38,444 nucleotides of DNA, taken from the IMG/VR virus record IMGVR_UViG_3300027865_000021, positions 1-38,444 of that record, one strand, 5' to 3'. Under the pieces are notes generated by a model, which saw only the letters and a list, made by a program, of their open reading frames with translations, searched no databases and was not told the DNA's origin. Made by a program: the position numbers and the translations under genes. Positions 6,363 through 25,580 of this stretch are shown here, one piece after another. This stretch comes from a virus. The number at the start of each line of letters is the position of its first letter. Position 1 is the stretch's first letter.

Positions 6363-6600
6363 AATCCATCTCCTTTAATATATCAATCAACTCTTCATCG
6401 CACCCACTACAATACTCATCAAATGCAAAGCCACTAGCATCTATAAGATTTATCTCTACATCCCATCTACCATCCTCTCTCTTATTAGCTCTGAAGTCAC
6501 TAACCATAACCTTCCCATTGTCGAATACTCGCCTAACCATATCTGTATAATTTTTAATATTAATAGAATCTTTAATGCCTTTATATGTGCCTACTCTCAT
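6352..6600 (-). CDS. Hypothetical protein (82 aa)
   Basis: It starts in an ATGA overlap with the gene before it. The acidic C-terminus contains C-x2-C (CSGCDEELIDIL). Its last codons (Tyr-Gly-Glu-stop) are part of the ribosome binding site region of the next gene. No family recognised. Confidence 0.65.
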   Translation of the reverse strand: MRVGTYKGIKDSINIKNYTDMVRRVFDNGKVMVSDFRANKREDGRWDVEINLIDASGFAFDEYCSGCDEELIDILKEMDYGE

Positions 6601-19311: not shown

Positions 19312-19341
19312 TTGACAGACCTTTTTTTAGTGCTATATAAT
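19312..19341 (+). promoter_or_regulatory. Strong sigma70 promoter
   Basis: TTGACA (19312-19317) and TATAAT (19336-19341), both consensus, are 18 bp apart. The start would be near 19348. It is the best promoter match in the window. Confidence 0.8.
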
Positions 19342-19361
19342 ATATATGTATCCAAGAGAAA

Positions 19362-19434
19362 ATGAGGCGCAGAGCCGCTTGATCGACAGCGCTCTCCCCA
19401 AGTCCCAAACCATAACATAGCCAAGCGAAGCGCC
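19362..19434 (+). ncRNA. Structured GC-rich leader RNA
   Basis: GGCGC (19366-19370) pairs with GCGCC (19430-19434). A hairpin AGAG-C-CGC / GCG-CTCT (19371-19395) begins at the next base. Its GC content contrasts with the AT-rich flanks. A six-codon frame starts at 19362. The leader ends about 135 nt before the gene at 19570. Confidence 0.45.
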
Positions 19435-19569
19435 AAAGAAAAAAGACACAACCTGAATATAATCTATACATAATATAATATATAATCATAATATCTATAA
19501 TATATATAATATACTTGTAATAGCAATAAGAATGATATATATTATAATATAATAATAAAGGAGAATATA

Positions 19570-19872
19570 ATGGATAGAAGGGAAAAATGTAGAGATCACA
19601 CAAATAAGTGCTCGAATGATCAATGTCAATCAAGGGATACTTATATTTACAGTTATGACGAAGCAAGAGAGTTGTGGCAATGCAGGAACTGTATGCACTA
19701 TTGGTCACAAGAACAAATGTATATACCAGACACAGATGATTATATAGAAGACTTGCAAGATCAGAGGGCTCCGCTATCAGATAGAGCTAAGGAAATATTT
19801 GATGAAGAGATCTTCGACCCAATTATCGCTGCAACTATTGAGATAGAATCATACCATCAAAACAGAGGTTGA
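19570..19872 (+). CDS. Small zinc-binding-like protein (100 aa)
   Basis: AAGGAGAATATA precedes the ATG. The N-terminal half has C-x5-C and C-x2-C pairs (NKCSNDQCQSR; WQCRNCMHYW), a possible zinc ribbon. The C-terminal half is acidic and helical (DRAKEIFDEEIFDP). It is the only gene between the strong promoter at 19312 and the noncoding block before the capsid gene, so it may be abundantly expressed. Function unknown. Confidence 0.7.
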   Translation: MDRREKCRDHTNKCSNDQCQSRDTYIYSYDEARELWQCRNCMHYWSQEQMYIPDTDDYIEDLQDQRAPLSDRAKEIFDEEIFDPIIAATIEIESYHQNRG

Positions 19873-20035
19873 AGTAATTAATATTGGTGGTATTATAATT
19901 ACACAAGGGATGCTCTCCAAGTAGTCCTCATGATTAATGGTTCTCATCGATTATGGAAGCTAAGAGACTAAATTACGACATTGCGAATCAATTTTGATGA
20001 CGCAAACACTTCTGGAAAGGTCCAACAGCGATAAA

Positions 20036-20087
20036 AGAGAGTCATAGGTTTTACTTCTCCTTTGCCCTATGGCTCTCTGTCTTTTTT
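20036..20087 (+). terminator. Rho-independent terminator
   Basis: AGAGAGTCATAGG pairs with CCTATGGCTCTCT (13 bp, one G-U) followed by GTCTTTTTT. It would end the transcript started at 19348. Confidence 0.85.
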
Positions 20088-20098
20088 AGTATATGAGA

Positions 20099-20169
20099 TG
20101 GCCGGTAACCCCACTGGGAGGGGGTGCTATGACGATAGAGAGGTAGGTTCGATTCCTGCACCGCCACCA
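20099..20169 (+). tRNA. Degenerate tRNA-like element with encoded CCA
   Basis: A canonical T arm (GTAGG-TTCGATT-CCTGC), an ACCGCCA acceptor strand followed by CCA, and a D-arm-like CCCC-ACTGGGA-GGGG are present. The 5' acceptor strand TGGCCGGT pairs only with a bulged C, and the anticodon region is a shortened CTAT-GACG-ATAG stem without a 7-nt loop. It is probably not a decoding tRNA. It could be a relic or a tRNA mimic. Confidence 0.45.
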
Positions 20170-20200
20170 TCTTTTTAATAAGAGATCTTAGATCACTGAA

Positions 20201-20274
20201 GCTGGTAAAGTTTGTGATTAAAGCAGAGCACTTCTAATCCCTATTAGCTCTGTTGTGAATAGGGTAAGGCCAGC
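20201..20274 (+). ncRNA. Predicted H-type pseudoknot RNA
   Basis: Stem 1 CAGAGC/GCTCTG (20224-20229, 20247-20252) and stem 2 CCCTATT/AATAGGG (20239-20245, 20258-20264) interlock with loops of 9, 1 and 5 nt, a feasible classical pseudoknot. An outer helix GCTGG/CCAGC (20201-20205, 20270-20274) encloses it. It lies between the two tRNA-like elements. Confidence 0.45.
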
Positions 20275-20330
20275 ACATTTTATATGGCAAACATAAGTAA
20301 TGATAACAGCATGACGATTCTGTTTAGTTT

Positions 20331-20405
20331 ATGGCTCTGGTGTAGTGTTAACACACCTGCTTAGTAGGCAGGAGATGCTTGGTTCAAATCCAAGGAGTGC
20401 CCCCA
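20331..20405 (+). tRNA. tRNA-like element, anticodon AGT (Thr), mismatched 5' acceptor
   Basis: D arm GTGT-AGTGTTA-ACAC, anticodon arm CCTGC-TTAGTAG-GCAGG and T arm CTTGG-TTCAAAT-CCAAG are all well formed, and the 3' end reads GAGTGCC-C-CCA. The anticodon would be AGT, with the expected T33 and A37. The 5' acceptor strand ATGGCTC pairs at positions 4-7 but mismatches at 1-3. It is either a tRNA pseudogene or needs 5' repair. Confidence 0.6.
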
Positions 20406-20446
20406 ATTTGAACGACAAGGAATCGCTACCCTAGTTCACTACCAAC

Positions 20447-20486
20447 GCCCGTCACCCATCTTAATTGAGGGTAGGCGGGCTTTTTT
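20447..20486 (+). terminator. Rho-independent terminator
   Basis: GCCCG (20447-20451) pairs with CGGGC (20476-20480) and ACCC (20454-20457) with GGGT (20469-20472), with a small internal loop, followed by six T. It closes the noncoding block. Confidence 0.8.
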
Positions 20487-20647: not shown

Positions 20648-21673
20648 ATGGCACATGATATCACAACCGCATTTATCCCACAAATCCAAAACCCATATAT
20701 CAATGAGAAGAGTACTATTCTTTCTCGTCTATGGCGTTCTGGTATTGTTACAAGCAATAGTGACCTGAACACTCAAGTCAATTCTAATGCTGGTAATGTA
20801 TACATCACTCCTTTTAATAAATCAATTCGTGATGCTGGACAGCGTCCTGTAGTTGGCTCACATACACTAGCAACCAAGCTCGCTCCTCAAGCCCTTAGTG
20901 ATGGTGTATACCAGACTCAAGGCACTGCACGTGCTCAGTCTTGGAACGTTTCTGATTTGAATCAGATTATCATTGGTAATGATCCAGTGAATGCACTAAC
21001 CTCTGAAGTCGCTGACTACTGGGTTGATGAATATCAGTACAATCTTATCTCTGTTACTAGTGGCCTACTTAAGGACAATGTTTCTAATGATTCTGGTGAT
21101 ATGATTCATAATGTATATTCTGACGTTGCTTCGCCTGCTGCTGGTAATCTTATTAGTGCAGACGCGGTGATTGATGCACAGCACACTATGGGCGATCATC
21201 GTGGTAAGCTCAATGCTATCATGATGCACTCTAGCACTCGTAAGCAACTTGAGAAAGATGAGCCAAATAACTTCATTCCTGCATCTGCAACTAATATCGG
21301 CTTTGACACTTATCTCGGAATGGTTATTCTTGAAGATGACGGCATGCCTGTTAATGCAGACGGTGCTACACCTACGAATACAGACGCATATGACACATAC
21401 CTATTTGGTGCTGATGTCTTCCAGTATGCCTCTGACAAGCGCCTTCGTGGTGAAGAGTGGGATCGTGACATTACTTCTGGTAATGGTATGGGCGAAGACT
21501 TCCTAGTTACTCGTCGTAAATACGTGATGCACCCTGCTGGCTTCGATCTGTCTGTCACTAATCCTGAAGATCTTGTCACTGACGCTATCTGGGAAGCTGG
21601 TACAAACTGGGATCGTAAAGTTACTTCTCGCAAATCAATTCCTATTGCTGTACTTCGTCACAACGTACTGTAA
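20648..21673 (+). CDS. Major capsid protein
   Basis: The 341-residue protein starts MAHDITTAFIPQIQNPYI, typical of the P22/Gp13-like branch of HK97-fold capsid proteins. An N-terminal arm with INEKSTILSRLWRSGIV is followed by the peripheral and axial domain pattern (YNLISVTSGLLKDN; AVIDAQHTMGDHRGKLNAIMMHSST) and the late IPIAVLRHNVL end. It assembles the icosahedral shell. AAGGAG precedes the ATG. It has its own promoter upstream and a terminator just downstream, so it is expressed as a single-gene unit. The codons favour CGT and CTT more than the neighbours, consistent with high expression. Confidence 0.9.
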   Translation: MAHDITTAFIPQIQNPYINEKSTILSRLWRSGIVTSNSDLNTQVNSNAGNVYITPFNKSIRDAGQRPVVGSHTLATKLAPQALSDGVYQTQGTARAQSWNVSDLNQIIIGNDPVNALTSEVADYWVDEYQYNLISVTSGLLKDNVSNDSGDMIHNVYSDVASPAAGNLISADAVIDAQHTMGDHRGKLNAIMMHSSTRKQLEKDEPNNFIPASATNIGFDTYLGMVILEDDGMPVNADGATPTNTDAYDTYLFGADVFQYASDKRLRGEEWDRDITSGNGMGEDFLVTRRKYVMHPAGFDLSVTNPEDLVTDAIWEAGTNWDRKVTSRKSIPIAVLRHNVL

Positions 21674-23561: not shown

Positions 23562-25580
23562 ATGGCTGTTACATCTACTAACGGAGGTCATCGGATAATC
23601 TTTGCTAGTAAAGGTGTTCAGGGACCCAAAGGCGATGACGGAGCTGATGGCTCAGGTGGTGTCTGGGGGTCAATTACTGGTGATATAAATACTCAGACTG
23701 ACTTACAAAATCAACTGGCAGCTAAGAAAGATGACTTCACGGAAAATACAGGATTCAATAAGAATTTTGGCTCTACTACAGGTACAGCTTGTCAGGGAGA
23801 CGACTCACGACTAAGCGATTCTCGAACTCCTACAGCACATACTCATTTAGAGTCTGAGATAACTGACTTAGACAAATACACCCAACTCCAAGTTGATACA
23901 TCATTGGCCTTAAAGGAAGATTCTTTTGTAAAGCAATCAGCCTTTAATAAAGATTTTGGTGTTTCCGTTAGCACTGTCTGTGAAGGTAATGATTCTAGAC
24001 TATCAGATGCCAGAACTCCATTAGCTCATACACATCTTGAAGTAGATATTACTGATTTAGACAGGTATACTCAGGCTCAAGTTGATGCAGCGCTAGCTCT
24101 AAAGGAAGATAGCTTCACAAAGAATACAGCCTTCAATACTAACTTTGGTGCTCTAGTAAGTACTACATGCGAAGGGAATGATCCTCGCCTCAGCGACAAT
24201 AGAGACCCTAACGCACACACTCACTTAGAAGTTGACATTACGGATCTTGACAAATATACTCAGTCAGAGGTTAATGTCCTACTTAATGGCAAGGAGGATT
24301 CCTTTTCCAAGAATACTGCTTTTAATAAGAATTTTGGATCTGCCGCCAGTACAGTCTGCGAAGGTAATGATGCAAGAGTAGTCAACTCAGTCACCTCAAC
24401 GAATGTCATAACCAATGATTCTATCGTACTTGGTGATGGAGGTAGTCGAGGAGTTAAGGAGGCTGGCACTGGCACAACTATTACACATTCGGGCCACTTG
24501 GATTTGGATTCTCTTATAGTAAATGAGATCTCAGAGCCGTCAACACCAGCAACAGGAAAAGCCAATCTCTTCCTAGATTCGGGCGACGGCGAACTAAAGG
24601 CTAAGTTTGATGATGGCGCAATTAAGGAGCTTGGTGTAAATTTCAGAGAGAATTTAATTATTGATGGGCAGTTCAATCACTGGGATGACGGAGCAGGACC
24701 CTTTACAGCAACGGGCTATACTGCCACAATGTGGTATAATGACATTTCTGGGATGATATCACCACAAGTTCAAAGAGTAGCACACACAGCGGCCTCAAAC
24801 GGACCATACTATACCGAAATAAAAAGCACCGTTAGTGATACGGTAAATGATTTTCATATTTTTAGGTTTAGGCATCGCCAAAGATCCGTACAGCATATTC
24901 TTGGCCGTGACATAACCCTTAAAATACGAGTTCGCGGGTCAGTTGCTGGAGATGTTGGCTTTAGGATGTCGGGCACTAGTTTGACAGCGCAAGCTGAGAT
25001 AATATCAATTACTACATCTTTTGCAGATTACATTGTGACAATACCTATAAATACACGCGCTACAGTTGCTGCTAGTGATAATATCGACTTTAATTTCGAT
25101 AAATACTTGGGCACTACTCATTCAATCGGCTATACGACGAACCCAACATATGAGGGTACCTTGGATATAGATGAGGTATCTATTCTTGAGGGCTCAAATG
25201 AATTTAATGGTATATGGCCCACTCCCGAAGAAGAGAGGATGAGAATAGGATCATATTATGAGAATAGCTATAATGATGGTACATCTCCGGGGGCCTCTAC
25301 AAATGCGGGAGCGGTCCTATATCAAGCTAATACAGCCAGTTCTGCAAATCACCCTAAATTTATACCCTTGCTAGCAAAAAAAATAACCACCCCGACAGTT
25401 AATATATACTCAACAACGGGGGCGATAAATAATATCAGGAACGTATCAGCAGCCACAGATTATGCTGCTAATGCCATATACGTTGGCAATTCATCTTTTG
25501 TTGGTTGGGTAAATCCAAATCAAGCGTTTGCGGAAACGGACCTAATAGGCTTTCACTATGTAGTAGATTCGAGGTTATAA
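23562..25580 (+). CDS. Tail fibre with collagen-like start and 63-residue repeats
   Basis: The N-terminus (ITFA-like RIIFASKGVQGPKGDDGADG) is a collagen-like anchor. From residue 55 a unit of 63 residues repeats at 55, 118, 181 and partly 244, each with AFN-x-x-FG, C-x-GND-x-RLSD-x-R and AHTHLE-x-DITDLD-x-YTQ. The HTH (His-x-His) motif is the metal-binding motif of intertwined fibre trimers. Residues beyond about 350 form a separate beta-rich tip (NLIIDGQFNHWDD onward), likely the receptor-binding part. It starts one base after the previous gene. Confidence 0.8.
   Translation: MAVTSTNGGHRIIFASKGVQGPKGDDGADGSGGVWGSITGDINTQTDLQNQLAAKKDDFTENTGFNKNFGSTTGTACQGDDSRLSDSRTPTAHTHLESEITDLDKYTQLQVDTSLALKEDSFVKQSAFNKDFGVSVSTVCEGNDSRLSDARTPLAHTHLEVDITDLDRYTQAQVDAALALKEDSFTKNTAFNTNFGALVSTTCEGNDPRLSDNRDPNAHTHLEVDITDLDKYTQSEVNVLLNGKEDSFSKNTAFNKNFGSAASTVCEGNDARVVNSVTSTNVITNDSIVLGDGGSRGVKEAGTGTTITHSGHLDLDSLIVNEISEPSTPATGKANLFLDSGDGELKAKFDDGAIKELGVNFRENLIIDGQFNHWDDGAGPFTATGYTATMWYNDISGMISPQVQRVAHTAASNGPYYTEIKSTVSDTVNDFHIFRFRHRQRSVQHILGRDITLKIRVRGSVAGDVGFRMSGTSLTAQAEIISITTSFADYIVTIPINTRATVAASDNIDFNFDKYLGTTHSIGYTTNPTYEGTLDIDEVSILEGSNEFNGIWPTPEEERMRIGSYYENSYNDGTSPGASTNAGAVLYQANTASSANHPKFIPLLAKKITTPTVNIYSTTGAINNIRNVSAATDYAANAIYVGNSSFVGWVNPNQAFAETDLIGFHYVVDSRL

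What the first reader, a model, noticed from the sequence alone, without database searches (positions are those of the whole stretch)
20201..20274. H-type pseudoknot in the noncoding block
Two interlocking stems of 6 and 7 bp with loops of 9, 1 and 5 nt sit inside a third 5-bp helix, flanked by tRNA-like elements. Pseudoknots of this size occur in riboswitches, nuclease-blocking RNAs and type III antitoxin RNAs. It may be a novel phage noncoding RNA.
Basis: partly seen in the sequence, partly recalled or inferred. Interest (0 to 1): 0.6.

Follow-up and report, generated by a model that had tools for sequence, protein, structure and literature searches.

The report
Orphan pseudoknot in phage noncoding block
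A short stretch between two damaged-looking tRNA genes of an uncultivated phage can really fold into the claimed RNA pseudoknot, somewhat better than chance allows, but it has no relatives to compare it with, so it is a plausible but unproven small RNA and none of the suggested functions is shown.

Summary
CAGAGC 20224-20229 pairs with GCTCTG 20247-20252. CCCTATT 20239-20245 pairs with AATAGGG 20258-20264. The loops are 9, 1 and 5 nt, inside GCTGG/CCAGC (6 bp with a G-U). It is the strongest H-type pseudoknot in the 775-nt noncoding block: 51 of 3000 Markov sequences reach its stem energy, and 1 of 3000 reach it together with an equally strong closing helix. It lies between two CCA-bearing, imperfect tRNA-like elements (20100-20169 and 20333-20405) and before a strong terminator (about 20447-20486).

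Conservation cannot be judged for lack of material. Three other IMG/VR contigs are identical over 271 nt. The closest divergent relative (L033, terminase 71%) keeps two terminators and a tRNA-like element but no recognisable pseudoknot. No Rfam, phage or plasmid match exists. A single look-alike in an Oceanicola genome is at the chance level. No type III toxin gene, tandem repeats or riboswitch family were found.

Best reading: a tRNA-sized, pseudoknotted accessory RNA from a degenerate phage tRNA cluster (0.4), against a chance or neutral structure (0.35). More interesting nearby: the first terminator hairpin keeps an anti-Shine-Dalgarno loop in the relative although its stem changed, and it fits early-gene but not structural-gene ribosome-binding sites.

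The parts
20201..20206 (+). closing helix, 5' strand (GCTGGT)
   Evidence: pairs with 20269-20274, last pair U-G (fold)
20224..20229 (+). pseudoknot stem S1, 5' strand (CAGAGC)
   Evidence: exact complement of 20247-20252
20239..20245 (+). pseudoknot stem S2, 5' strand (CCCTATT)
   Evidence: exact complement of 20258-20264
20247..20252 (+). pseudoknot stem S1, 3' strand (GCTCTG)
20258..20264 (+). pseudoknot stem S2, 3' strand (AATAGGG)
20269..20274 (+). closing helix, 3' strand (GCCAGC), followed by ACA
20100..20169 (+). tRNA-like element A: T-arm, acceptor stem with a bulged C, CCA end; the anticodon arm is replaced by CTAT-GACG-ATAG
   Evidence: RNAfold; BLAST to T5-like tRNA-Met over 20139-20186
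20333..20405 (+). tRNA-like element C (anticodon AGT, U-U mismatch in acceptor stem, CCA end)
   Evidence: Rfam RF00005 41.1 bits; ARAGORN only at lowered threshold
20447..20486 (+). intrinsic terminator T2 downstream of the three elements
   Evidence: stem plus T run; homologue in L033 about 4070-4035
20036..20087 (+). terminator hairpin T1 upstream, with CU-rich loop
   Evidence: 13-bp stem plus T run; homologue in L033

Best explanation
20201-20274 is a tRNA-sized (74 nt) structured RNA module inside a short stable-RNA operon of the phage: tRNA-like A, pseudoknot B, tRNA-like C, terminator T2. It would be transcribed by read-through past T1 and released from the polycistron by the host's tRNA-processing nucleases, which cut around its neighbours. 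The acceptor-like closing helix and coaxial pseudoknot would make it compact and nuclease-resistant. Its most likely job is as an accessory or decoy RNA for a host RNA-binding or tRNA-acting protein during infection, not as a decoding tRNA (it has no anticodon or T arm). Shown: the complementarity, its better-than-chance strength within the block, its position, and the terminator. Inferred: transcription, processing, folding in the cell, and the decoy role.
For: All three helices are perfect, with loop lengths compatible with a coaxial H-type pseudoknot. The combined strength of pseudoknot and closing helix is reached by 1 of 3000 Markov sequences of the block. The element is 74 nt, tRNA length, between two CCA-bearing tRNA-like elements on the same strand, and a strong terminator follows. 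No ORF of 20 aa or more covers the pseudoknot core. Bases 20093-20490 fold better than shuffles, z -2.58. The relative L033 keeps the same kind of block: two terminators and an irregular tRNA-like element.
Against: No divergent homologue, so no covariation. The three related contigs are identical over 20150-20420. L033 has no equivalent; its best candidate is no better than 47% of shuffles. No promoter-like site was found between T1 and A. There is no database match. The p-value does not account for scanning 38 kb. The decoy role has no direct evidence.
Confidence: 0.4

Rival explanations
1. Chance or neutral structure: the stretch is fast-evolving spacer or a decayed tRNA in a degenerate tRNA cluster, and the crossing complementarity has no function.
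For: 6+7-bp H-type arrangements are expected about 0.7 times per 38-kb strand. There is no equivalent in the nearest relative. The neighbouring tRNA-like elements are themselves imperfect. The element was picked out of a whole window.
Against: Three perfect helices together are rare within the block, 1 of 3000. About half of the pseudoknot pairs are G-C.
Confidence: 0.35
2. Cis-regulatory pseudoknot controlling a downstream leader peptide (ATG at 20284, 26 aa, partly hydrophobic) by hiding the AGGGTAAGG sequence in S2 and its linker.
For: A 26-codon ORF starts 10 nt after the element. Purine-rich SD-like bases lie in and after the 3' strand of S2.
Against: SD-to-ATG spacing is about 14 nt. The ORF overlaps tRNA-like C. 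Nothing comparable was seen in L033. T2 separates the element from the next real gene, the capsid gene at 20648.
Confidence: 0.07
3. Phage-borne mimic of a type III antitoxin RNA (as in the pseudo-ToxI of phage phiTE) that binds and neutralises a host ToxN-like nuclease.
For: The H-type pseudoknot core of 41 nt is near the size of ToxI units (34-36 nt, PMC5086642). Phages are known to use such mimics.
Against: There are no tandem repeats, and no match in an Rfam search of the block at E up to 5. None of the window proteins scanned matched a toxin or defence family (one hit at E 0.009 is negligible). Known antitoxins need about 2 repeats.
Confidence: 0.05
4. Highly diverged tRNA whose T-arm was lost, with the acceptor helix and a weak D-stem (GTTT/AAGC) remaining and an Arg(TCT)-like 'CTTCTAA' loop.
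For: Length 74 nt, acceptor-like ends GCTGGT/GCCAGC followed by ACA, and position in a tRNA cluster.
Against: No tRNA match to this stretch even at E 5. No anticodon stem and no TTCRA loop.
Confidence: 0.1

Closest known systems
Stable non-tRNA RNAs within phage tRNA clusters (T4 RNA C and RNA D, 'species 1 and 2'; from my own knowledge, no paper found in the library)
   Same: small structured RNA of unknown role transcribed among phage tRNA genes
   Different: no sequence similarity found by BLAST or Rfam; those RNAs are longer; expression here is not shown
Type III antitoxin RNAs (ToxI, CptI, TenpI) and the phage pseudo-ToxI
   Same: H-type pseudoknot of similar size
   Different: single unit, no tandem repeats, no adjacent toxin gene, no Rfam match
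tRNA (RF00005)
   Same: length, acceptor-like closing helix, neighbours that are tRNA-like
   Different: no T-arm, no anticodon arm, no covariance-model match
Pseudoknotted translational operators such as that of the T4 gene 32 mRNA (own knowledge)
   Same: H-type pseudoknot in a phage transcript
   Different: no adjacent gene to control; a terminator lies between it and the capsid gene

Membership tests
Type III antitoxin RNA | tandem array of pseudoknot repeats | tested here: not met
   Tandem Repeats Finder finds no array at 20201-20274
Type III antitoxin RNA | adjacent ToxN/CptN/TenpN toxin gene after a terminator | tested here: not met
   the next gene after T2 is the major capsid protein; Pfam finds nothing in the upstream 100-aa gene and PADLOC nothing in the genes scanned on either side
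Type III antitoxin RNA | H-type pseudoknot of about 34-45 nt | tested here: met
   41-nt core with all pairs; units of 34-36 nt in PMC5086642
tRNA | cloverleaf with T-arm and 7-nt anticodon loop | tested here: not met
   no Rfam tRNA match at 20201-20274 up to E 5, none by ARAGORN
Known riboswitch or ribozyme families | match to a curated covariance model | tested here: not met
   no match in 4227 Rfam families, threshold E 5 on the block
Functional structured RNA (general) | compensatory changes in the stems across homologues | tested here: inconclusive
   only identical copies available; no equivalent in L033
Functional structured RNA (general) | transcript covering the element | not testable with these tools
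   no expression data
Nuclease-blocking RNA (xrRNA-like) | halts a 5'-3' or 3'-5' exonuclease | not testable with these tools
   biochemical property

The most novel reading that the evidence does not exclude
The block is a dedicated RNA-warfare and timing locus. It would hold non-decoding tRNA-like RNAs (one with a conserved GACG loop in place of the anticodon) and a tRNA-sized pseudoknot that together occupy host tRNA-acting enzymes. It would also hold a terminator hairpin whose conserved loop base-pairs with early-gene ribosome-binding sites to shut off early translation.
Probability: 0.1. Interest if true: 0.7.

Novelty: new member of a known kind. Interest (0 to 1): 0.3.

Why it matters
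If real, it would add an orphan phage RNA to the poorly understood non-tRNA and tRNA-like RNAs that accompany phage tRNA genes. Phage tRNAs are now linked to evasion of tRNA-targeting defences (PMC10264068, PMC11555353; listed, abstracts only). The pseudoknot itself is not yet more than a good candidate. The conserved anti-Shine-Dalgarno terminator loop beside it is the more testable lead.

Tried and rejected
Pattern scan of IMG/VR for the core: only copies of this virus plus matches without the downstream S2 strand. Pattern scan of bacterial genomes: one Oceanicola match (L178) with a few further shared bases, but about 2 such matches are expected by chance (my estimate). It is absent from 295 other genomes of the family, and its surroundings from 6 other genomes of the genus, so I treat it as chance. 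My notebook entry called it a probable homologue; that was too generous. A pseudoknot equivalent in L033 (4563-4488): 236 of 500 shuffles are as good, rejected. Origin of the pseudoknot by rearrangement of the T1 hairpin (ACTTCT...CCCTAT...CTCTGT shared): p 0.05-0.15, a lead only. Closer relatives by portal, terminase and capsid: only L033 is useful. Terminase relatives in bacterial genomes: none. tmRNA: considered because of a 9-bit match and GGCAAAC downstream; not supported, the gathering score is 84.

Full report
What the window is. The window is a 38,444-base IMG/VR virus record of a siphovirus: portal, terminase and scaffold genes lie on the minus strand, capsid and tail genes on the plus strand. 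The finding lies in a noncoding block between a 100-aa gene (19570-19872) and the major capsid gene (20648-21673). Nothing in the phage collection is close; the best capsid match is 35%.

Check of the observation. In the window, exact 6+7-bp H-type arrangements with short loops occur at two places, this one and an AT-rich one, with 0.67 expected per strand. Within the 775-nt block it is the strongest pseudoknot by stem energy. In 3000 first-order Markov sequences of the block, 51 hold an equally strong pseudoknot and 1 holds one with an equally strong closing helix. Without the pseudoknot the stretch folds no better than shuffles. The structure is therefore better than chance locally and unremarkable if one allows for the whole window.

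Anatomy of the surroundings. From left to right on the plus strand the block holds the following elements. (a) T1: a 13-bp hairpin, 20036-20078, followed by a run of six T (20082-20087), with the loop TTTTACTTCTCCTTTGC. (b) Element A, 20100-20169: a tRNA-like fold with a D-arm, a good T-arm and CCA. Its acceptor stem has a bulge, and a short CTAT-GACG-ATAG hairpin stands where the anticodon arm should be. Its 3' part resembles T5-type tRNA-Met. (c) The pseudoknot, 20201-20274. (d) Element C, 20333-20405: an Rfam tRNA match of 41 bits with anticodon AGT and a mismatch in the acceptor stem. (e) T2: a strong terminator. The 398 nt from A to T2 fold better than shuffles, z -2.58. A perfect sigma-70 promoter consensus lies at 19312-19341, and a weaker extended one at 19869-19896. 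None was found between T1 and T2 on the plus strand. Expression of A, the pseudoknot and C therefore probably depends on read-through of T1, which is an inference.

Relatives. Three IMG/VR contigs carry the same block with no difference over 20150-20420. The only informative relative is L033 (terminase 71%, portal 57%). Its block, on the strand equivalent to ours, holds an irregular 109-nt tRNA-like element (Rfam 35 bits), a T1 homologue with a different stem but the same CU-rich loop, and a T2 homologue with a conserved leader TCGCTACC...AGT....TACCA. A systematic search for a closing helix around a pseudoknot in L033 gave a best candidate that 47% of shuffles match. The pseudoknot is thus either specific to our virus or too diverged to see. 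Viruses at terminase 50% have terminase, portal and capsid genes on one strand and no such block between them.

Is it a known family? No Rfam model matches at E up to 5. BLAST finds nothing in phages or plasmids beyond short random matches. Against type III antitoxins: there are no tandem repeats. The upstream neighbour is an unrecognised 100-aa protein and the downstream one is the capsid protein. Published units are 34-36 nt in 2.8-5.5 copies, and about two copies are needed (PMC5086642). A single-unit phage mimic, as the phiTE pseudo-ToxI began, is not excluded but nothing points to it. A loose pattern in all bacterial genomes gave one match in an Oceanicola genome. It is absent from the 295 other genomes searched in its family, and its surroundings from six other genomes of the genus. 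About two matches are expected by chance, so I give it no weight.

Mechanism. Committed reading: a tRNA-sized accessory RNA released from a degenerate tRNA cluster, protected by its closing helix and pseudoknot, and acting as a decoy or scaffold for a host RNA-binding protein. Shown: complementarity, local rarity, position, terminator. Inferred: transcription, processing, fold in the cell, target. The main rival is that the structure is neutral.

Something better supported next door. The T1 loop reads as the complement of AAAGGAGAA(GTA). Among genes on the minus strand between 5.6 and 14.3 kb, 9 of 24 ribosome-binding regions contain at least 8 contiguous bases complementary to the loop, up to 13. 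Among structural genes 0 of 24 do (Fisher p 0.0016). The plain 16S anti-SD sequence shows no such split in the same output. The loop is conserved in L033 although the stem is not. This suggests a terminator-derived small RNA that represses early genes. It was noticed after the fact, and the match in L033's own genes is weaker (9-10 bases in three genes). It deserves its own test.

Noticed in passing
window 20036-20087 (T1); L033 4181-4118 minus strand: Terminator hairpin whose CU-rich loop (GGTTTT..CTTCTCCTTT.GC) is conserved in the relative while the stem is completely different. The loop is an anti-Shine-Dalgarno sequence matching at least 8 nt in 9 of 24 early-gene and 0 of 24 structural-gene leaders: a possible phage sRNA.
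   Followed up: partly
window 20127-20138 and 20312-20317; L033 about 4455-4440 minus strand: tRNA-like element A and the L033 tRNA-like element both carry a hairpin with the loop TGACGA on different stems (CTA/TAG versus AGTC/GACT) in place of the anticodon arm. A further TGACGA sits in an AACAG/CTGTT hairpin loop at about 20305-20323.
   Followed up: partly
L033 4482-4374 minus strand: 109-nt tRNA-like element with perfect acceptor stem and T-arm and an extra hairpin (CGCTTATTAGCG) between the GACG hairpin and the T-arm.
   Followed up: no
window 20423-20444; L120 reverse strand 6384-6404: Conserved leader TCGCTACC..AGT....TACCA directly upstream of terminator T2 in both viruses; not found in this setting in any other IMG/VR contig.
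   Followed up: partly
window 19312-19341 and 19456-19557: Perfect sigma-70 consensus promoter (TTGACA-18-TATAAT), followed by a structured GC-rich stretch (about 19360-19435) and a very AT-rich repeat region, possibly a replication origin.
   Followed up: no
window 23724-24380: Internal direct repeats of about 65% identity within a tail-protein gene (self-hits).
   Followed up: no
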